Positions 24,078-34,120 of a stretch of 64,000 nt of DNA are shown one piece after another. How positions within the stretch are numbered: the stretch's first letter is position 1; each line of letters opens with the position of its first letter. The DNA is from Halomicroarcula saliterrae (GTDB taxonomy: Archaea; Halobacteriota; Halobacteria; Halobacteriales; Haloarculaceae), in contig NZ_JAMQON010000001.1 of assembly GCF_031624395.1 (NCBI RefSeq), positions 1,240,001-1,304,000 of the forward strand. The letters run 5' to 3'. The notes under the pieces were generated by a model that had not been told where the DNA came from, did not search any database, and saw nothing but the letters and a program-made list of their open reading frames with translations. The position numbers were made by a program, and so were the translations under genes.

Positions 24078-25196
24078 CTATTCGTCCTCGGTCGCCGTCG
24101 CCTGCGACAGCGCGTCCTCGGGTTCGACCCAGATGACGAACTGGTCGTACTCCGCCCGGTCGACGACGCCGTTGATGTACTCGGCGTCGACCGGCGGGCG
24201 GTTGACGTCGGACTCGGCGACCGGGACGACCTGTCGGACCTCGTCGACGACCCAGCCGACCGCGCCCTGCTCCTCGAACTGCTCCGGGTCGAAGACGATG
24301 ATGAGGTTCTGTTCGCCCTCGCTCTCGATGTTCATCATCTCCTTGGGTTCGAGGATGGTCGTAATCTGGCCCCGCAGGTCGACGACACCGTCGACGAAAT
24401 CTGGCGTGTTGGGCACCCGCGTGACCGCGCTCCGTTTGACGATCTCCTCGACGTACTCGATGTCCAGACAGTAGTACTCCTCGCCGAGCGCGAACTCGAG
24501 GACGCGCACCACCTCCTCGGACTGGGTCGACCCCTCCTCCATCGCGGCTCGCGCCCCGCCCTCGGTGGACTCGACCGAGGAGGTGGCCATCGCCGCCTCC
24601 AGCAGCTCCCGGTCCGGGAGCTCGACGCCGGTCACGTCCCCGGGCACCGTCGAGGCACCGGTCACGTCCGCCGGGACCGACGGACTGTCCGTCTCGGTCG
24701 CTGCCTCGCTGTCGGTCCCCGCCTCGGCCGTCTCACCGGCGTCCGTTCCCATCACTTCCGCCGCCGACGCGGCGGCTCGCTGGGCGATGGCCTCGGCCTC
24801 GTCGGCCGCCGCGGGCGAGTTCGACGCGTCCGACCGGGAGTCGGTCGCGTCCGTCCGTGTCGACGCGGGCTGTGAGCGCTCCGGCGGTTCCGACGCCGTC
24901 GTGCCGGTCCCCGACGCCGTGGCAGCGTCACTCCCAGTCGTCGCGCGCTCGGTCGCGCCGTCGTTCTCACTCCCGTCCGTCGCGGGTTCGCCGGGCGACT
25001 CCGTCGACGCTGCGTCGTTGCCCGAGCTCGGATGGCCGGAGTCGCTGTCCGACGCCGCCGGTTCGGAGACATCGGTCGACGCCGCTGTCTCGGCCTCCGC
25101 GGTCGCGTCGGACTCCGCCGTTTCGTCGTCGGTACCCCTGTTGCCTTCGCGCATGTTGCGGATGCGCGCTGCTCTGTCCATACGGTCGTCGCTCAT
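24078..25196 (-). CDS. CheW-domain protein with a ~230-residue disordered N-terminus (ParP-like candidate)
   Basis: 372 residues. Residues 1-25 are basic (DRMDRAARIRNMREG); 26-225 are low-complexity Ser/Thr/Asp/Glu/Ala; 230-365 are a CheW/AIF domain (VRVLEFALGEEYYCLDIEYV, then VDLRGQITTILEP, then GWVVDEVRQVVPV). Ordinary CheW is about 150 residues, so the long tail is the oddity. The start ATG overlaps the stop of an upstream ParA-type ATPase by four bases. In Vibrio, ParP couples a CheW-like AIF domain and a disordered tail to the ParA-like ParC to hold chemosensory arrays at the pole; this gene pair has the same architecture, which is an inference of function, not of homology. Confidence 0.85.
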   Translation of the reverse strand: MSDDRMDRAARIRNMREGNRGTDDETAESDATAEAETAASTDVSEPAASDSDSGHPSSGNDAASTESPGEPATDGSENDGATERATTGSDAATASGTGTTASEPPERSQPASTRTDATDSRSDASNSPAAADEAEAIAQRAAASAAEVMGTDAGETAEAGTDSEAATETDSPSVPADVTGASTVPGDVTGVELPDRELLEAAMATSSVESTEGGARAAMEEGSTQSEEVVRVLEFALGEEYYCLDIEYVEEIVKRSAVTRVPNTPDFVDGVVDLRGQITTILEPKEMMNIESEGEQNLIIVFDPEQFEEQGAVGWVVDEVRQVVPVAESDVNRPPVDAEYINGVVDRAEYDQFVIWVEPEDALSQATATEDE

Positions 25197-26086
25197 GCTG
25201 TCACCTCGTTGTAACCGAACTTCCTGTCGAACTCCGCGGCGATGTCGCCGAACACCTCGGCCATGTCACACTGCTCGTCGACGCCGAAGAGGGAGTTGCC
25301 CTCGGTGTAGGCCCGCTGGAGGGCCACCCGTTTCCGGACCTGCCACACCGGGCTGTCCGGAAACGCCGCTTTGAACCACTTCAGCATCGTCTTCGCTTCC
25401 GACGTCGTCTCGATACGGTTGGCGACGACACCGAGCATCTCGACGGTGATGCCGGTCTGCTGTTCGAGCGCGACCATCTGGTCCATCAGCAGTTCGATGG
25501 CCCGCTCGGAGGTCGCCTCCGCCAGCGCCGGCACGAGGACGTGCTGGGCGGCGAAGACCCCGGTGTCGGTCAGGTTCCCGTAGAACGGCGGGGAGTCGAT
25601 GATGACGTAATCGTACCCCGACAGCGTCGACAGCGCCCGGTCCAGCGTGTCCAGCGCGTGCTCGCCCCGGACCATCCCCGGCGTGACGTTGACAGCGAAC
25701 TGCGAGAGCACCGCCGGGTCGACGTCGAGCCCGCGGGCGTTGATGCGGGCCATGAGGTCGGCGATGGTCAGTTCGTGTTCCGCCTGCAGCATGTCGATGT
25801 TCGAGGGGACCACGTCCATCTCCTCGTGTTCGACCACGAGGTCGGACACCACCGCGGGGTCGCCGGTGAGCGCGTCGAACAGCGTCGGCGGCTGCGCGTC
25901 GTAAGCCTCGCCGAGCCCCAGTCCCTCGGTCGCGTTGCCCTGCGGGTCCAGGTCCACGAAGAGGACGTCCCGGCCCCGGTCACTCAACGCACCGGCTACG
26001 TTGATAGCTACAGTCGTCTTGCCGGTCCCGCCCTTCGCGTTGGTCACGCAGATCCGGGCGGGGCCGGTCGTCGAGCCCCGGTTCAT
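25193..26086 (-). CDS. ParA/Soj-family ATPase, coupled to cheW
   Basis: 297 residues. Deviant Walker A KGGTGKTT (residues 15-22, AKGGTGKTTVAINVAG), switch region DLDPQGNAT, Walker B YDYVIIDSPPF. This is the ParA/MinD superfamily, with no MinD-type C-terminal amphipathic helix (it ends in FDRKFGYNEVTA). No ParB gene or parS-like repeat is near; its partner is instead a CheW protein with a long tail, translationally coupled (ATGA at 25193-25196). Such orphan ParA proteins position cargo such as chemoreceptor arrays. Start at 26086 fits a TATA box (TATTTTTATA) at 26121-26130. Confidence 0.92.
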   Translation of the reverse strand: MNRGSTTGPARICVTNAKGGTGKTTVAINVAGALSDRGRDVLFVDLDPQGNATEGLGLGEAYDAQPPTLFDALTGDPAVVSDLVVEHEEMDVVPSNIDMLQAEHELTIADLMARINARGLDVDPAVLSQFAVNVTPGMVRGEHALDTLDRALSTLSGYDYVIIDSPPFYGNLTDTGVFAAQHVLVPALAEATSERAIELLMDQMVALEQQTGITVEMLGVVANRIETTSEAKTMLKWFKAAFPDSPVWQVRKRVALQRAYTEGNSLFGVDEQCDMAEVFGDIAAEFDRKFGYNEVTA

Positions 26087-26120
26087 CGTCGAACTGTCCC
26101 AATCTCGGTCGTCGCCCGGT

Positions 26121-26130
26121 ATAAAAATAC
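26121..26130 (-). promoter_or_regulatory. TATA box for the parA-cheW operon
   Basis: TATTTTTATA on the minus strand, about 35-45 bases upstream of the parA ATG at 26086. The divergent region (26087-26258) also holds an imperfect palindrome GTCGT-CAG-ACGAC at 26196-26208, a possible operator between the two transcription units; operator status is a guess. Confidence 0.5.
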
Positions 26131-26258
26131 GCCCCCGATTATCAAAGTCGTAACTGTGCGTGTTCGGGCGATTTACGCGCATGCGGCCGTGAGCCGTCGT
26201 CAGACGACCGTCAGACCGAGTGCAAGATTTAACTTCGCGTAGTTGAAACAGGGAGACC

Positions 26259-26756
26259 ATGACTATCAACCCGCGCGACTACGACCTCGACGAGCTGCGG
26301 AAGATGGCCCGCCAGCGCGGCGAGCGCTCGGGCGGGCTGGCCGACGGCGACGATGTCCCCGACCCGGCGAACCTGGATATGGGAATGGAGGAGGGAGACG
26401 AGGAGATGCTGGCGGGCAGTTCCTTCCGGTCGGGGCTGTATCGGGAGCTGCTCCCCTTCCTCTCGGGAGAGAGCCGGGAGAAACCGTATCTCGGAGCCCT
26501 ACCGGAGACGTACGCGGCGGAGTTCGTCGTCTTCGAGTGGCTGGAGTTCCTGCTGATGCACTCGGGCTATCAGGGGGCCGACGAGGCGCTGGCCTACTAC
26601 GAGTCCATCGACTGGATTACCGAGGCGGTCCAGTCGGACCTCTCGGACTACCTGCTCGGCATCGACGAATCGGCCACGAACGACGGGAACGACCTCAGCG
26701 TCGACGACCACATGCTGAGTCTCGTCTACATCGCGAAGCTGACTGCCATGACATAG
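26259..26756 (+). CDS. Stand-alone ArlD/E (FlaD/E) domain archaellum-accessory protein
   Basis: 165 residues. N-terminal NPRDYDLDELRKMARQRG resembles the start of haloarchaeal FlaD/E proteins; a variable acidic linker follows (residues 25-60), and residues about 65-163 are an Arch_fla_DE domain: KPYLGALPETYAAEFVVFEW, then LAYYESIDWITEAVQSDL, then VDDHMLSLVYIAKL, all hallmark positions. ArlC/D/E form the cytosolic link between the archaellum motor and chemotaxis via CheF. It is divergent from parA-cheW and upstream of the actin-like gene. TATA-like GATTTAACT at 26226-26234. Confidence 0.82.
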   Translation: MTINPRDYDLDELRKMARQRGERSGGLADGDDVPDPANLDMGMEEGDEEMLAGSSFRSGLYRELLPFLSGESREKPYLGALPETYAAEFVVFEWLEFLLMHSGYQGADEALAYYESIDWITEAVQSDLSDYLLGIDESATNDGNDLSVDDHMLSLVYIAKLTAMT

Positions 26757-26837
26757 CAAGGTCATTCGTGGACCACTATCACTGCTGATTCTTGACGTGA
26801 GGTTATATAGCCGGGCAGCGACAACTGGGCATCGTAC

Positions 26838-27941
26838 ATGAGTGACGACGACGCGGCGGAGGCCGCCGACGAGGACGCGCCGGCGACCTCCGAGGACGAC
26901 GGCACGAACGGGGGGACGGTTCCGGTCGGTGTGAAACTCGGTAGCACTCGGACAGTTATCGCCCTGCCCGACAGCCACGGCACCGAGAACCACATCATCA
27001 AGACGCTGACCTGCATGGCGACCTACGAAGACGCGTTGACGGGCGAGGAGAAGGTGCTCTACGGCGAAGAGGCCGCCCGGGAGTACCCCGACCGCGTCCA
27101 GTACATGCTCCGGTCCGGGCTCCCCGAGGACGAGGACCGTGCGGAGATGACCAAGACGTTCTTCGAGGCGCTCATCGAGGAGAACGACATCCCGGCAAAC
27201 AGCGGCGTCGTCTACGCCATCCCGACCATCGACAACCCGGCCGGTCTGGAGAATCTGAAAGCGGTCATCGAGGACTCGGGCATCGGAATCAGCCTCATGG
27301 AGAGCTATCCGGAGTCGCTGTGTGGCTCCATTCCGGCTTTCGGTGACGAGCTCGAAGCCATCGACGAGATATTCATCTCGGTGAACATGGGGTCGACGAA
27401 CCTCGAAGCCTCGGCGTACCGGCGCGGCGAGCAGCTCGCGCCCTTCACGACCGGCGCGGTGACCGGTAACGAAGTCGACCGCATGATAGCGAACTACGTC
27501 GAAGAGGAGACCCAGGGACGGGTCAACATCGACACCCAGACCGCCCGCGAGTACAAGGAGGGCCACGCGGACTTCCTCGATTTCGAGCCCTTTACCGACA
27601 TCATCCAGCAGCCCGGCGGCGGGACCCACGAGTTCACCATCGAGCGCTCGGTGATGGACGCCGTCGACGAGTACCTCGACGACGCGGTCGACGAACTCGC
27701 CAACACCTTCCTCCCGGAGCTGGCCAACGATTACATGAAGGTGTACCAGCTGGCGCTGGACCGCCCCATCGTCATCACCGGGGGGATGGCCTGCATCCCC
27801 GGTATCGTCGCGGAGTTCGAGAAGCGACTCAGCGAGGAGCTAAACCGGGAAGTCGAGGCGACTGCGGCCGACCAGCCCGACGTGGCGCCCACTATCGGCG
27901 CTCAGCGAATCGCGGCACGGCTCGTCGAGAACAGCGGTTGA
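26838..27941 (+). CDS. Salactin-like actin-fold ATPase
   Basis: 367 residues: an acidic disordered N-terminus (residues 1-25), then an actin/Hsp70-ATPase fold. Phosphate-1 motif VGVKLGSTRTVIA (30-42), phosphate-2 ISVNMGSTNLEAS near 178, adenosine motif ITGGMACIPGI near 312. The second motif has Asn and Ser where actins have DxGGGT, as in other haloarchaeal actin homologues such as salactin of Halobacterium, which forms dynamically unstable filaments growing from the cell poles. TATA GTTATATAG at 26802-26810 precedes it. Its neighbours (ArlD/E-domain, ParA, CheW) fit a polar role. Confidence 0.8.
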   Translation: MSDDDAAEAADEDAPATSEDDGTNGGTVPVGVKLGSTRTVIALPDSHGTENHIIKTLTCMATYEDALTGEEKVLYGEEAAREYPDRVQYMLRSGLPEDEDRAEMTKTFFEALIEENDIPANSGVVYAIPTIDNPAGLENLKAVIEDSGIGISLMESYPESLCGSIPAFGDELEAIDEIFISVNMGSTNLEASAYRRGEQLAPFTTGAVTGNEVDRMIANYVEEETQGRVNIDTQTAREYKEGHADFLDFEPFTDIIQQPGGGTHEFTIERSVMDAVDEYLDDAVDELANTFLPELANDYMKVYQLALDRPIVITGGMACIPGIVAEFEKRLSEELNREVEATAADQPDVAPTIGAQRIAARLVENSG

Positions 27942-28398: not shown

Positions 28399-30240
28399 AT
28401 GGGTCAAATTATCGATTTAAATAGCTGGGAAGAGGGGTTACCCGGCGCACTCACGCGGACCGGAGGGGGTGGGTTACTGTCCAGGGGGTATCTCGCCGAC
28501 CAGCCGGCGGTAGCGCTGGTCGAGGACGCCGAGACGATGCAGTACGTGCTTACGAACCGAAAGAGCGGTGTCGAGGTCGAATCGGCGGACTCGACGTATC
28601 ACGTGAAACCGGACAGCCGCCACCGGACGGTCGTCGTGGCCACCGACCGCAGGCTACTGGTGCTCGTCGGACGCGAGGCGGGGGACGAGCGCACCACTAT
28701 CGAACTGGCCGAGGTCACTGGCGTCGAAGTGAGCGTGGGACGCCGGAACGGCCGGCTCACGGTCAGTCGGGCCGACGACACCACGTGGCGGATACCGACC
28801 GACGCCGACGGGCTCGACGCCGTCGCCGGCTACCTCCGCGACGCGGCCGACGCGTGGCGACACGTCGAGGACCTGCTGGCGTCGGTGGACGCGGACCTCT
28901 CTCTGGCGACCAGACTGTCCGAGACCGGGGAGTACGACCGCGCTCTCTCGACGGCGCGCGGGACACAGGACGACATCGAGGCCGCCCGGTCGATGGCGAT
29001 GCGGTTTAGCACTGAACATCCGGGGAACGCGTTACACGAACGACCCAAGGCGGCCGAGGCGCGCCAGCGAGCGACCGTGGCCGCCGTCCACGTCGCCCGG
29101 GCCAGAGACGCGGCCACGATTGGGGAGCAGCGCTTCGGGGACAGCGACTACGAGGCGGCCCAGGAAGCGTACGAGCGGGCCCGCGAAGCGTACGACTCGG
29201 CGCTGACCGTCGAAGCGGGAGGGCTCGACGACCACAAGCAGATACGGGCAGAACGCGACAAGGCGGCCGCTATCGCCGAGAGAATCCGCGACTCGCCCCT
29301 CCCGGACGCTATCACGGCAGACAGGGCGGCCGTCGCGGCCGACGACCCCGCGACGGCGGCCACGCAGTGGGAGACGGCGCTGGCACGCTATCGGTCGGCG
29401 CTCGACGCCGACGAGCCGGACGACGTCCTCTTCGGGAGCGACCCCGAGCAGATACGGGACCGCATCGGGACCGTCGCCCGGAGCCTCACCGCGGCCCGGC
29501 GGACCGTCGCCGACGACGCCATGGGGGCCGGCGACTGGTACGCCGACGCCGAACAGTACGAGGCGGCACTGGAAGAGTTCGCGGCGGCCGCCGAGGCCTT
29601 CGACGCCGCGCTGGCGACCGCCACGGAGAGCTACCCCGACGCGGTCCCGCATCTGGAGGCCGACCGCGCGGCGCTCCAGCAGCGCATCGACCGCGCGCAA
29701 GCGGCCCTGAACGGCGAGGACCCCGGCGAGGACCGCATTCAGGCCGACGACGAGCCCGAATACGAGCTGTCGGCGACGCTCGGGGAGGTGGACGGCCCGA
29801 CCGCGATAGCGGACGCCATCGCACCGCTGACGACGGACGCGGCGCTGGCGGAGTTACCGGAGTCGACCGCCGAGCGTCTCCAGCGGCTCGACGGCGCCGG
29901 CGTGACGCGGGTCGTCAGCGACGCGCTGGACGCGACGGACTGGTCGACCCGGGCCGCCAGCCCGCGGATGCCGTTCGACCTGCTTGCCACACGCGGCACG
30001 GAACGGATGGGCGTCTTCGTCACGGCCGCAGACAGCGAACTCACCGCCGATGTCGTCGACCAGTGTGCCGGCGTCACCGGCGCGGCCGGCACCGACGCCG
30101 TGATGCTCGCGACCACCGCGACGATTCCGACGCCGGTCGAGGAGTTCGCGGCCGAGCGCGACGCCCGACTCCTGGGGCGCGAGTCGCTGGCCGCCATCGT
30201 CGACACCCAGGGGCTGACGGTCCCGACACCGGTCGAGTGA
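28399..30240 (+). CDS. PH-like / helical-repeat / degenerate Mrr-like protein
   Basis: 613 residues. About 35-150 looks like a bacterial PH/GRAM-type beta domain (TMQYVLTNRKSGVEVE, then TVVVATDRRLLVLVGREAGD, then VTGVEVSVGRRNGRLTV). 160-430 is Ala-rich helical with TPR-like pairs (DYEAAQEAYERAREAYDSAL; EQYEAALEEFAAAAEAFDAA). 500-613 matches an Mrr/RecB-like endonuclease fold (MPFDLLATRGTERMGVFVTA, then GTDAVMLATTATIPTPVEEF), keeping the first Asp but lacking the Gln/Glu-x-Lys of the active site (VFV instead), so probably not a nuclease. Possible membrane-surface scaffold. Confidence 0.78.
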   Translation: MGQIIDLNSWEEGLPGALTRTGGGGLLSRGYLADQPAVALVEDAETMQYVLTNRKSGVEVESADSTYHVKPDSRHRTVVVATDRRLLVLVGREAGDERTTIELAEVTGVEVSVGRRNGRLTVSRADDTTWRIPTDADGLDAVAGYLRDAADAWRHVEDLLASVDADLSLATRLSETGEYDRALSTARGTQDDIEAARSMAMRFSTEHPGNALHERPKAAEARQRATVAAVHVARARDAATIGEQRFGDSDYEAAQEAYERAREAYDSALTVEAGGLDDHKQIRAERDKAAAIAERIRDSPLPDAITADRAAVAADDPATAATQWETALARYRSALDADEPDDVLFGSDPEQIRDRIGTVARSLTAARRTVADDAMGAGDWYADAEQYEAALEEFAAAAEAFDAALATATESYPDAVPHLEADRAALQQRIDRAQAALNGEDPGEDRIQADDEPEYELSATLGEVDGPTAIADAIAPLTTDAALAELPESTAERLQRLDGAGVTRVVSDALDATDWSTRAASPRMPFDLLATRGTERMGVFVTAADSELTADVVDQCAGVTGAAGTDAVMLATTATIPTPVEEFAAERDARLLGRESLAAIVDTQGLTVPTPVE

Positions 30241-30477: not shown

Positions 30478-31389
30478 TCACAGCGTCGTGCTGGTCCCGG
30501 CGTAGCCACAGTCGTCACAGGCTGCCGTCTCTCGCTCGCCCAGCGTGTAGACCGCCACGTGGCCGCCACACCGGGGGCAGTTGTCGCCCGCCGACGGCTG
30601 GCGCGCGTCCCGGACGACGCGGTCGAACACCGGCGTTCGCGTCGAGCCCGCGACGACCTGCGCGTGGACCGCCGAGACGGAGTCCTCGACGGCGACGCCC
30701 CAGATGAGCACGGCGTCGTCCGGGAGCGTGGCCTGGATACCGTCCACGGCGTCGACTGCCGATTCGAGCGTGAGGTCGTCGTCGCCGACGACGTTGACCA
30801 GTACGGCGCTGAGCCCGTCGATGTCCGCGTAGGCCGAATCGAGCGCGTCCTCGACCGCGTGAAGCGTGTCCGCGGCCACGTCGCCGGTACTCGTCGCCTT
30901 ACCGGTCGTTATCGCGGCGGCCTCGCCGTGGTCGAGCACCGTCCTGATGTCCGCGGGGTCGAGGTTGATGACGCCGGGTCGGGCGACGATCTCGTGCAGC
31001 GTCGTCACCACCGAGCGGACGCCCTGACGGTGATGCTCTGGCGGGATGACGACGGTCGCGTCCACGGCCGAGCGGAGCCGGGCGATTTCCCGGGCCGTCG
31101 TGGGGTCCAGGTCCGCCGCGGTCGCCGGTGCGCCGACGACGGCGATTGTCAGCCCCTCGCGCGTCGCCAGCCGGTCGAGCCACTCTGCCGGCGGCACGGT
31201 TCCGTTGCCAAAGTCCGTCGCGAACACCGTGATGGCCGACCGGTCACGCGGCTCCGTCGGAGGCTCGGACAGCGCGGTGATACCCGGGACCTGCCCCAGG
31301 CTCTCCCCGACGGCCGCGAGCCCGCCGTGACCGATGACGACCGAGTGGTGGTGGCCCAGAAACGTGACGGTATCTCCTCGAATAGACAC
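30478..31389 (-). CDS. Shortened FtsZ-like protein with C-terminal zinc ribbon
   Basis: 303 residues (FtsZ is 360-400). T1-like start VVIGHGGLAAVGESLG (17-32); only about 28 residues separate it from ATDFGNGTVPP (57-67), which stands where the GGGTGTG nucleotide loop is; then LTIAVVGAP, AVDATVVIPPEHH and the T7 loop GVINLDPADIRTVL (139-152) with the catalytic N-x-D-x-x-D (142-147) intact; SAVLVNVVGDDDLTLE and AVLIWGVAVED follow in exact FtsZ order. Residues 271-294 are a zinc ribbon (CPRC, CDDC), absent from FtsZ. GTP binding is therefore doubtful but the T7 loop could complete another subunit's active site. Confidence 0.8.
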   Translation of the reverse strand: MSIRGDTVTFLGHHHSVVIGHGGLAAVGESLGQVPGITALSEPPTEPRDRSAITVFATDFGNGTVPPAEWLDRLATREGLTIAVVGAPATAADLDPTTAREIARLRSAVDATVVIPPEHHRQGVRSVVTTLHEIVARPGVINLDPADIRTVLDHGEAAAITTGKATSTGDVAADTLHAVEDALDSAYADIDGLSAVLVNVVGDDDLTLESAVDAVDGIQATLPDDAVLIWGVAVEDSVSAVHAQVVAGSTRTPVFDRVVRDARQPSAGDNCPRCGGHVAVYTLGERETAACDDCGYAGTSTTL

Positions 31390-31467: not shown

Positions 31468-32778
31468 TCAGTTAAGGCCGTACCCGGAACTGTCGTCCGT
31501 AGCCGCCCGCGACAACAGCTCCCGTTCGGTCGGTGGAAGCGACTCGTCGGCCATCGGAATCTCCCAGTGCCCGAGTTTGCCCAGCATCCGGGTCCGGGAG
31601 CCCTCGACGCCGAGTCGGAGCGTCGGGGCGAGCGTCCCGCCGAAGCGACGGAGCTGCTCCGACTCCGGGAGCTCGGCGATTTCGTCCAGCGTCTCCCCGG
31701 CGAAATCGAAGTAGTTGAAGAAGTTCTGGACCAGCAACTCCCCGTCGTGGGGAAAGACCATCCAGGAGTACGCCTGGAACGGGGCGTTCGCGGGGTTGGT
31801 CACGACCAGTCCGGTGTCGTTGAGCGGGACGTAGTCGCCCCTGAGCTCCTCGGCGACGAAGCCGTAGAGCCCGTCGAACCCGGTGAGGCCCGGCCCGAAG
31901 GTGTGGAGGTGGCTGGAGACAAAGAGGTAGTACAGCCCGTCGCGGTAGACGATGTGGGGCCGTTCCAGCTCCTGGTTGACTCCGACGGCGTCCAGCAACG
32001 GGTCCGCGAGCTCCCAGTCGAGGGGGTCCCCCGTGGGCGAGCGGGCGATACCGACGCTGCCGTTGAACCCCTGCTGTGTTGCGTCGCCGCCGCAGGCTGC
32101 GCTCCCCTCGGGGACGGGTGAGTTCGCCTCGAAGAGCAGCCACGTCTCACCGGTCTCGGGGTCCTCGAAGAACCACGGGTCACGGAAGGTGTAGGTCATC
32201 GCCCGCGACTGGTCCTCGCGTTCGTAGCGCTCCCCGTCGGGCGAAAGCAGTTCGTGGTGGGTCCAGGGGCCGGCCAGCTCGAACCCGTCGTCGGTGTCGA
32301 TACGCCCGCCGGTCGCGCCGACGATACGCTGCGTGTAGGTCAGCTCGCCGGCCGCCTCGTCCCCGGCGGCGGTGTAGAACAGGTAGACGTCGCCGTCGTC
32401 GTACAGCGCTGAGCCCGCCCACTGGCGCTGCCCCAGCGCCGACTCGAACACCGGGCCGCCGTCGGTCCAGTTCCGCCCGTCGGCCGAGTAGAACAGCCGA
32501 ATCGTCGCGACGTCGTGTCGCGCGCCCGGGAGCGTCTCGGAGGGCGCAGTCAGCGAGAAGCAGACGCGATAGCCGTCGACCGTCGCCGGCGTCCCGTCCC
32601 GCTCGCGGAGGAGCCACGTGTCCCAGATGTGCAGATGGGGCATCTGGTCGGTCTCCGGCGGGTAGAACACCGGCGCCACCGTCTCTGCCGTCCGTTCGAT
32701 ACCGCTGGCCTGCTCGCGTGTCCAGCCGGCGCGGGCGCGGAACCCGGGGGCGCCCTCGTCGAGTAACTGCTCGTCCAT
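31468..32778 (-). CDS. GH68 family levansucrase/inulosucrase (fructosyltransferase), no signal peptide
   Basis: 436 residues, five-bladed propeller GH68. Nucleophile Asp53 in HIWDTWLL, transition-state Asp in FRDPWFF (about 199), acid/base Glu in ELERPHIV (about 268); WAGSALYDDGDVYLFYTA and ANAPFQAYSWMVFPHD also match. The family polymerises fructose from sucrose outside the cell, yet here the protein starts directly at MDEQLLDEG with no Sec or Tat signal. TATA AGCCTTATAA at 32801-32810, 28 bases before the ATG, fixes the start as leaderless, so the lack of a signal is not due to mis-annotation. It may act in the cytoplasm or leave by an unrecognised route. Confidence 0.9.
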   Translation of the reverse strand: MDEQLLDEGAPGFRARAGWTREQASGIERTAETVAPVFYPPETDQMPHLHIWDTWLLRERDGTPATVDGYRVCFSLTAPSETLPGARHDVATIRLFYSADGRNWTDGGPVFESALGQRQWAGSALYDDGDVYLFYTAAGDEAAGELTYTQRIVGATGGRIDTDDGFELAGPWTHHELLSPDGERYEREDQSRAMTYTFRDPWFFEDPETGETWLLFEANSPVPEGSAACGGDATQQGFNGSVGIARSPTGDPLDWELADPLLDAVGVNQELERPHIVYRDGLYYLFVSSHLHTFGPGLTGFDGLYGFVAEELRGDYVPLNDTGLVVTNPANAPFQAYSWMVFPHDGELLVQNFFNYFDFAGETLDEIAELPESEQLRRFGGTLAPTLRLGVEGSRTRMLGKLGHWEIPMADESLPPTERELLSRAATDDSSGYGLN

Positions 32779-33028: not shown

Positions 33029-34120
33029 GTGGACCGAAGACAATTCGTGAAAACTGGCGTACTACTGACTGCAGCCGCCGCATATCCCGGTAATGCCGCT
33101 GCGAAAAAAGACGTTAGAAAATTCAAACATCTGGAGAAAGATTACGAAAAGAGAGAGAAGAAAGACGGCGATGCCGACAGAGAGCGGCGACTGGTGAAAT
33201 CCGACGGTGAGATCATCCAGTCGGAGACCGAAGACACGAAATCGGAGATTCCGGAGCTGGACGACTGGGACACGGTTATCTACGACGAAGTCAGGTTCGG
33301 GGGCGGTGAACCGACGAAGTACATCTGCTATCAACAGGAAGATAAGGGGAACCCCGAGTTCAGATTCGATGGGAAGATCTACACGACGGAGTACAAGGTG
33401 GTGAAAGGAGAGCTAAAGGATGCGAAAGAGAAGCGACAAAAACCCGAGGATAGCGCTCCTGCGGAGAGCCAGGGGCCGGAAACTATCCACAGTCACCGGG
33501 CCCGCTCAGGGCGAGTCAGTTCCGGTGAGCAGTATACGATATCGAACGAGCACAGCGGCAGTTTCACGCCGGCCATGTCCGACCACACAGTCATACAGAG
33601 CGCCCCAAAGAGCAAGAAAGACGGGCACGACTGGTGGGAAGGGGTCGCACGGGCAACCATGGACCACACCAGTACAGAGGCGACGCTCGGGATGCTCGTC
33701 TTCGGTGCTGCAGACGTCAAACTCGGGTGGGAGCTCTACGACAACGTGTATATCGACCACGACGGGGAAGTGGAAGTCATCGGCAACGGCCACGTGGAAG
33801 GCGTCTGTTCGTCCGCTGCGGGCGGCGGTCGCGTGACCGGCGGCATCTTCATCCGTGAGGGCCGTTCCGGGAGTATGTATTCGGACATGGACAACGAGTG
33901 GGGTATCGATAGAGGACTGGGTCTGGTGGACGGGTGGGCCGTCGACCGGACCTGGAACGCGGAATTGACCGAGGACGTCACACCCGGACGATACGATGTC
34001 GGCATCCGTTTCTTCGCGAAAGCAGCGGCAGCCACGACGGCAGCTGCACAGGTGTCGTTCGAGAACAGCGGCGCGCCCGGGGGATTCGATTTCGATTACG
34101 TAAATGTTATCCCCCAATAG
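33029..34120 (+). CDS. Tat-exported protein of unknown function in a low-G+C islet
   Basis: 363 residues with a GTG start (33029), dictated by the twin-arginine signal beginning at once (DRRQFVKTGVLLTAAAAYP) and cleavage likely after AAA near residue 25. A Lys/Glu-rich charged region follows (28-150), then a soluble domain with LGMLVFGAADVKLGWELYDN and a Gly-rich beta part ending in GAPGGFDFDYVNVIPQ. No catalytic motif seen. Its codon use is A/T-richer than the rest of the window (for example AAA, GAT, TAT are common), consistent with horizontal transfer. It begins divergently from GH68 and is followed by a small membrane gene. Confidence 0.65.
   Translation: MDRRQFVKTGVLLTAAAAYPGNAAAKKDVRKFKHLEKDYEKREKKDGDADRERRLVKSDGEIIQSETEDTKSEIPELDDWDTVIYDEVRFGGGEPTKYICYQQEDKGNPEFRFDGKIYTTEYKVVKGELKDAKEKRQKPEDSAPAESQGPETIHSHRARSGRVSSGEQYTISNEHSGSFTPAMSDHTVIQSAPKSKKDGHDWWEGVARATMDHTSTEATLGMLVFGAADVKLGWELYDNVYIDHDGEVEVIGNGHVEGVCSSAAGGGRVTGGIFIREGRSGSMYSDMDNEWGIDRGLGLVDGWAVDRTWNAELTEDVTPGRYDVGIRFFAKAAAATTAAAQVSFENSGAPGGFDFDYVNVIPQ

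What the first reader, a model, noticed from the sequence alone, without database searches (positions are those of the whole stretch)
30478..31389. Shortened FtsZ-like protein: T7 catalytic loop intact, nucleotide loop degenerate, zinc ribbon added
FtsZ landmarks appear in order (T1-like GHGG, INLDPADIRTVL T7 loop, VLIWG) but the GGGTGTG loop is replaced by DFGNGT and about 40 residues between T1 and T4 are missing. A CxxC-CxxC ribbon ends the protein. It might cap or modulate FtsZ filaments, supplying the T7 loop to another subunit but not binding GTP itself.
Basis: partly seen in the sequence, partly recalled or inferred. Interest (0 to 1): 0.72.

Follow-up and report, generated by a model that had tools for sequence, protein, structure and literature searches.

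The report
FtsZ relative keeping only its trigger
Some salt-loving archaea carry a shortened cousin of the cell-division protein FtsZ that seems no longer able to hold GTP but keeps, unchanged, the loop that makes a neighbouring FtsZ use up its GTP, and it ends in a zinc-binding module, so it may act as an off-switch for the division ring.

Summary
The ORF lies on the minus strand (30478-31389, 303 aa) and is a true FtsZ homologue: Pfam FtsZ_C above cut-off, family profile against M. jannaschii FtsZ E 1.5e-34, and a low-confidence model that matches FtsZ chains with Z up to 14.0. It is not a one-off: 25 of 392 genomes searched in its order carry a member, in 5 genera of 3 families, separated from ordinary FtsZ by a wide score gap and forming one clade (100/100). 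Across 26 aligned members every nucleotide loop is lost or degenerate, yet the T7 catalytic triad N-x-D-x-x-D is invariant (26/26), and so are the four ribbon cysteines (26/26). Only 6 of 131 columns fixed in the hosts' FtsZ1/FtsZ2 stay fixed here, and 3 of the 6 are that triad. Purifying selection is clear. All 15 carriers checked also have two full-length FtsZs. Best reading: a one-sided FtsZ subunit that docks on the GTP face of a normal FtsZ, supplies the catalytic aspartates and blocks or resets assembly. Only anatomy and conservation are shown; the mechanism is inferred. Salactin next door is incidental.

The parts
30478..31389 (-). Shortened FtsZ homologue with C-terminal zinc ribbon, 303 aa, GTG start (several relatives begin with ATG at about residue 3)
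31213..31389 (-). Residues 1-59: remnant of the nucleotide-binding domain (S1, degenerate T1 'GHGG', S4); T2-T3 region deleted (about 48 aa between T1 and T4)
   Evidence: strands in the model
31198..31215 (-). Residues 59-64 'DFGNGT', the place of the lost T4 loop GGGTGTG
30982..31038 (-). Residues 118-136, shortened H7; the T6/H6 segment (about 16 aa) before it is deleted
30946..30966 (-). Residues 142-148: T7 loop NLDPADI with N142, D144, D147 (26/26 invariant)
30652..30918 (-). FtsZ_C (GTPase-activating) domain, residues 158-246, with the VLIWG strand
30499..30579 (-). Residues 271-297: zinc ribbon C271/C274/C291/C294, in the place of the FtsZ C-terminal tail

Best explanation
It is a monophyletic haloarchaeal family of one-sided FtsZ subunits. 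The face that receives a neighbour (the nucleotide pocket, T1-T6) has been dismantled, and the face that gives (the GTPase-activating domain with the T7 synergy loop) is kept. It most likely docks by T7 on the GTP-bearing top face of a normal FtsZ, FtsZ1 rather than FtsZ2, inserts D144/D147 beside the gamma-phosphate and promotes hydrolysis. No further subunit can then add to its own other side. Free GTP-FtsZ would be sequestered and reset, because incoming subunits join through that same top face; filaments would be capped at their GTP-exposing end. The zinc ribbon stands where FtsZ has its anchor-binding tail and would target the protein to a partner. SHOWN: homology, losses, invariant T7 and ribbon, single clade, purifying selection, presence of two intact FtsZs in the carriers checked. 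INFERRED: GTP-free state, docking, hydrolysis in trans, capping or sequestering, choice of FtsZ1, role of the ribbon.
For: T7 N, D, D, the T after them, and the W and G of the IWG strand are 26/26. Of 131 columns fixed (29 or more of 30) in the carriers' FtsZ1/FtsZ2, only 6 stay 26/26, 3 of them the T7 triad (chance 5.5e-5 if columns were independent, which they are not). Pocket residues are gone: T6 N 0/26, T4 glycines 2-8 of 26, T2 N 0/26, the R that matches SaFtsZ R143 0/26, the Q that matches Q48 0/26 (mapping to SaFtsZ by motif). In SaFtsZ filaments top-subunit N208, D210 and D213 act on the nucleotide of the subunit below, and incoming monomers are proposed to join by their GTP top face (PMC8936486, passages). 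dN/dS 0.13-0.52 in 10 pairs. 15 of 15 carriers tested have two full FtsZs besides it; 30 of 30 of those contain GGGTGTG. FtsZ1-like over FtsZ2-like residues at 98 diagnostic columns 455:275.
Against: No binding or activity data. The patchy distribution (25 of 392 genomes; clean absence at the same locus in 8 of 8 congeners read) means it is dispensable, so not a core division factor. T7 could be kept for docking alone, or partly for folding. The structure model is weak (pLDDT 57, about 47-53 around T7), so loop exposure is not tested. Many other columns fixed in FtsZ are lost even in the C-terminal domain.
Confidence: 0.5

Rival explanations
1. Adaptor without catalysis: it docks on FtsZ by the T7 face only to bring the ribbon's partner (protein or DNA) to the division ring; GTP hydrolysis is incidental.
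For: Ribbon cysteines 26/26 and P-R and Y beside them 26/26 show that the ribbon is as constrained as T7; the ribbon replaces the usual tail.
Against: A docking-only role does not obviously need both catalytic aspartates kept in 26 of 26 while most other FtsZ-fixed residues drift.
Confidence: 0.25
2. Re-purposed protein with no FtsZ contact: a nucleic-acid- or protein-binding zinc-ribbon protein on an old FtsZ scaffold.
For: Ribbon weakly resembles IS1595 and S27ae ribbons; no conserved neighbourhood with division genes.
Against: Does not explain why N, D and D of T7 are among the few invariant residues outside the ribbon.
Confidence: 0.12
3. The partner is a CetZ rather than FtsZ1/FtsZ2, acting on cell shape or motility.
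For: The window's genome has five further tubulin-domain proteins besides FtsZ1 and FtsZ2, taken here as CetZ-like; the locus sits beside archaellum D/E and salactin genes in this genus.
Against: Sequence is FtsZ-like: FtsZ_C is present, and the residues lean to FtsZ1. Neighbours are the same in genomes without the gene.
Confidence: 0.08
4. Decaying relic of FtsZ.
For: Many lost motifs; patchy presence.
Against: dN/dS 0.13-0.52, invariant T7 and ribbon over deep divergence (28-35% identity among the distant members), open frames in all members read, single clade.
Confidence: 0.03

Closest known systems
Archaeal FtsZ1 (haloarchaeal and M. jannaschii FtsZ)
   Same: Order of elements, H7-T7-FtsZ_C core, NxDxxD loop, IWG strand; profile alignment over positions 4-255
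   Different: No T2/T3/T4/T6 elements, no anchor-binding tail (DIDYVE-like), added zinc ribbon, about 300 aa instead of about 350-400
ARC3 of plant chloroplasts (FtsZ-like-domain protein; the title of a cited paper says it regulates Z-ring assembly through interaction with FtsZ2; seen only as passages and reference titles in PMC4593956)
   Same: Working idea: a non-canonical FtsZ relative with an added domain that regulates true FtsZ
   Different: Plant-specific and fused to other domains; not compared by sequence here; whether its FtsZ-like domain keeps T7 or binds GTP was not checked
MciZ and SulA (bacterial FtsZ inhibitors)
   Same: Act on one end or face of FtsZ (MciZ caps by the bottom, T7-exposing interface: PMC8936486, passage; SulA recalled)
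   Different: Small unrelated proteins on the opposite face; the present protein would mimic the T7 side and take the GTP face
FtsZl families of Makarova and Koonin 2010 (PMC2875224, passages)
   Same: Non-canonical members of the FtsZ-tubulin superfamily with extra domains
   Different: They keep the GGGTG(S/T)G loop, used there as the search signature, which is exactly what is lost here
Alpha-tubulin's T7 acid acting on beta-tubulin's GTP (recalled)
   Same: One partner supplies the catalytic acid to the nucleotide of the other
   Different: Alpha-tubulin still binds GTP

Membership tests
Canonical FtsZ | FtsZ_C domain (PF12327) over curated cut-off | tested here: met
   34.4 bits against 27
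Canonical FtsZ | TIGR00065 equivalog cut-off | tested here: not met
   64 bits against 295.2, partial match 79-246
Canonical FtsZ | Tubulin/FtsZ GTPase domain (PF00091) | tested here: not met
   absent at E 10; the 7 genomic PF00091 places do not include this locus
Canonical FtsZ | T4 loop GGGTG(T/S)G | tested here: not met
   DFGNGT here; the glycine columns kept in 2-8 of 26 members
Canonical FtsZ | T7 synergy loop NxDxxD | tested here: met
   26 of 26
Canonical FtsZ | C-terminal anchor-binding tail | tested here: not met
   a ribbon in its place in all 26; FtsZ1 tails DIDYVE-like, FtsZ2 tails GLDVIR-like
Canonical FtsZ | FtsZ fold | tested here: met
   VIA-align Z 14.0, 214 aligned, rmsd 4.2, top 50 entries all FtsZ; but the model has pLDDT 57
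Canonical FtsZ | GTP-dependent polymerisation | not testable with these tools
   needs purified protein
CetZ | CetZ-type C-terminus (no recognisable Pfam C-terminal domain, as stated in PMC9871819) | tested here: not met
   FtsZ_C present
FtsZl1/FtsZl2 (Makarova and Koonin) | GGGTG(S/T)G signature | tested here: not met
   signature
ARC3-type regulators | sequence relationship to ARC3 | not tested
   no ARC3 sequence was searched

The most novel reading that the evidence does not exclude
A stand-alone GTPase-activating half of FtsZ that works in trans: a family of FtsZ GAPs that seize the GTP face of FtsZ, the opposite face from MciZ (and, as recalled, SulA), and are aimed by a zinc ribbon, possibly to DNA, as a nucleoid-linked brake on haloarchaeal division.
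Probability: 0.15. Interest if true: 0.88.

Novelty: new variant of a known kind. Interest (0 to 1): 0.68.

Why it matters
FtsZ hydrolyses GTP only where two subunits meet. A natural protein that keeps only the giving half would be a ready-made reagent to separate capping, hydrolysis and nucleation in FtsZ treadmilling. It would be a regulator type acting on the GTP face, and a lead to division control in haloarchaea, where ring regulators beyond SepF are few (the last point recalled).

Tried and rejected
Salactin partnership: the actin homologue about 2.5 kb away suggested a cytoskeletal module. Rejected: all 15 congeners without the gene that were searched also carry salactin, and in the 8 of them whose locus was read the block archaellum D/E - salactin - 613-aa protein - GH68 - squalene/phytoene synthase is present with the FtsZ-like gene cleanly missing. 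In other genera the neighbours differ: FAD oxidase and T2SSE ATPase in f4 g16, MatE or aminotransferase in g3.

Operon clue: the GH68 gene just upstream matched in 5 of the 7 carrier stretches given to (L077, L078, L087, L090, L092; not in L079, L080) and in 8 of 8 non-carriers, so it is a local neighbour, not a partner.

Decay: rejected by dN/dS and conservation.

Viral origin or spread: one scan of viral contigs gave only an unrelated protein with a similar ribbon.

Wider spread: 292 class genomes (17 hits, 16 already seen plus G395) and 294 phylum genomes (6 hits, none outside the order), at E 1e-45, so remote versions could be missed.

Origin from FtsZ1 or FtsZ2: the tree gives one clade for the shortened family but long branches meet, so the sister group is not settled; residues lean to FtsZ1. 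One FtsZ1 (L125) was mislabelled FtsZ2 in my labels; this does not touch the 131-column count, and should change the 98-column comparison only slightly.

The second structure job was not used.

Papers: the listings of searches showed no description of this family; subscription papers and preprints are not held.

Full report
WHAT IS THERE. The ORF 30478-31389 is on the minus strand and encodes 303 residues. Pfam FtsZ_C matches residues 158-246 above the curated cut-off, while the tubulin/FtsZ GTPase domain PF00091 does not match even at E 10. NCBIfam ftsZ matches 79-246 with E 1.5e-17 but far below its equivalog cut-off. The nearest solved structures by sequence are M. jannaschii FtsZ (E 7.4e-14). 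The window lies in a 4.2 Mb genome with two full-length FtsZs and five further tubulin-domain proteins. Its close relatives include Haloarcula records (L013 is Haloarcula rara).

A FAMILY. A single-sequence search found relatives that align into the ribbon. A profile of 15 rows (A1) searched against 392 genomes of the order gives 25 genomes at E 8.3e-69 or better; the next matches are ordinary FtsZ at E 2e-38, a clean gap. The carriers are 8 genomes of the window's genus (27 genomes of it were searched), 6 of g3 and 1 of g9 in the same family, 9 of g16 in family f4, and 1 of g48 in f12. The class sample adds one carrier (17 of 292). The phylum sample shows none outside the order (6 of 294). 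On a tree of 26 members with 30 FtsZ1/FtsZ2 proteins from carriers, the shortened proteins form one clade (100/100). Inside it g3 (family f1) groups with g16 (family f4) rather than with the window's genus, so transfer, or old paralogy plus loss, is likely (inference).

ANATOMY. The profile aligns to M. jannaschii FtsZ over positions 4-255 (E 1.5e-34) and to haloarchaeal FtsZ with hhalign probability 99.7. Two segments are missing: about 48 residues between T1 and T4, and about 16 between S6 and H7 (T6/H6). Across 26 members (25 genomes plus L015; L014 left out as partial) the invariant residues are V18, the T7 residues N142, D144, D147 and T150, V198, W230, G231, and in the ribbon C271, P272, R273, C274, Y281, C291, C294, G295. 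I took the 131 columns that are fixed in at least 29 of 30 FtsZ1/FtsZ2 of the same hosts and asked which are kept: only N232, D234, D237 (T7), V286, W318 and G319 in the numbering of that script are 26/26. The T4 glycines are kept in 2-8 of 26, the T6 asparagine in 0, the T2 asparagine in 0, the H5 arginine in 0. If columns were independent, the T7 triad lying among the six survivors has probability 5.5e-5; shared ancestry weakens that number.

FOLD. A model from five sequences has pLDDT 57 and pTM 0.56, too weak for loop geometry. Its strand-helix order fits FtsZ, Foldseek ranks FtsZ chains first (E 1.9e-7), and the second look gives Z 14.0 over 214 residues, rmsd 4.2, with all 50 listed entries FtsZ.

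SELECTION AND PARTNERS. dN/dS is 0.13-0.25 in five pairs of the window's genus and 0.39-0.52 in five pairs of the f4 clade, so the gene is maintained. All 15 carriers tested hold exactly two full FtsZs besides the shortened one, and all 30 of these contain GGGTGTG. At 98 columns that tell FtsZ1 from FtsZ2, the family matches FtsZ1 455 times and FtsZ2 275 times.

CONTEXT. In the window salactin, a 613-aa protein with a weak Mrr-like end, a GH68 enzyme and a squalene/phytoene synthase flank the gene. Eight of eight congeners without it that were read have the same block with the gene absent and no remnant at E 1e-3. Other genera have other neighbours. So the neighbourhood says little about function, and the gene behaves as a single dispensable unit.

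HOW IT PROBABLY WORKS. In FtsZ filaments loops T1-T6 of the lower subunit hold GTP, and the T7 aspartates and asparagine of the upper subunit complete the active site; incoming monomers are proposed to join by their GTP-bearing top face (PMC8936486, passages). The family keeps the three side-chain residues named there on the T7 side and none reliably on the pocket side (mapping by motif). The T7 acids serve the neighbour's nucleotide, not the protein's own; beta-tubulin, which has a lysine there, shows that the fold does not need the acid (recalled). Selection on them in a protein without a pocket therefore points to action on another subunit. From this follow, as inference, docking on the top face of FtsZ (FtsZ1 preferred), hydrolysis in trans and no onward growth, hence sequestering of monomers and capping of the GTP-exposing end. 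The ribbon stands where FtsZ carries its anchor-binding tail and probably aims the protein. The main rival keeps the docking and drops the catalysis.

NOVELTY. Non-canonical FtsZ paralogues in archaea have been noted in general (PMC2875224 and PMC9856176, passages), and ARC3 is a precedent for an FtsZ-like regulator (PMC4593956, passages). I found no description of a T7-only, ribbon-bearing family in the listings. It is not a canonical FtsZ (PF00091, T4, equivalog score and tail not met) but descends from one. I file it as a new variant of a known kind.

Noticed in passing
window 26259-27941 and 25193-26269: Salactin sits next to an archaellum D/E protein gene in the window and in all 15 congener stretches compared, with a ParA/MinD-like ATPase beside it in several, whereas the salactin paper reports poor synteny within Halobacterium (PMC10746226 passage).
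   Followed up: partly
window 28399-30240: 613-aa protein between salactin and the FtsZ-like gene evolves fast (40-64% identity in congeners where salactin keeps 84-93%) and ends in a weak Mrr-nuclease-like match below cut-off (E 0.0099).
   Followed up: no
window 33029-34120: Protein with a weak Tat-signal match and no other family match; no relative at E 1e-3 in the 15 congener stretches, so perhaps a strain-specific insert in a conserved block.
   Followed up: no
G289:C1:2350385-2356118 (L089 covers it): In one g3 genome the shortened gene lies about 5 kb from a full-length FtsZ1-type gene.
   Followed up: no
window 31468-32778: GH68 levansucrase-type gene just upstream on the same strand, with a GH32 enzyme on the other side in several congeners: a fructan cluster in the same block.
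   Followed up: no
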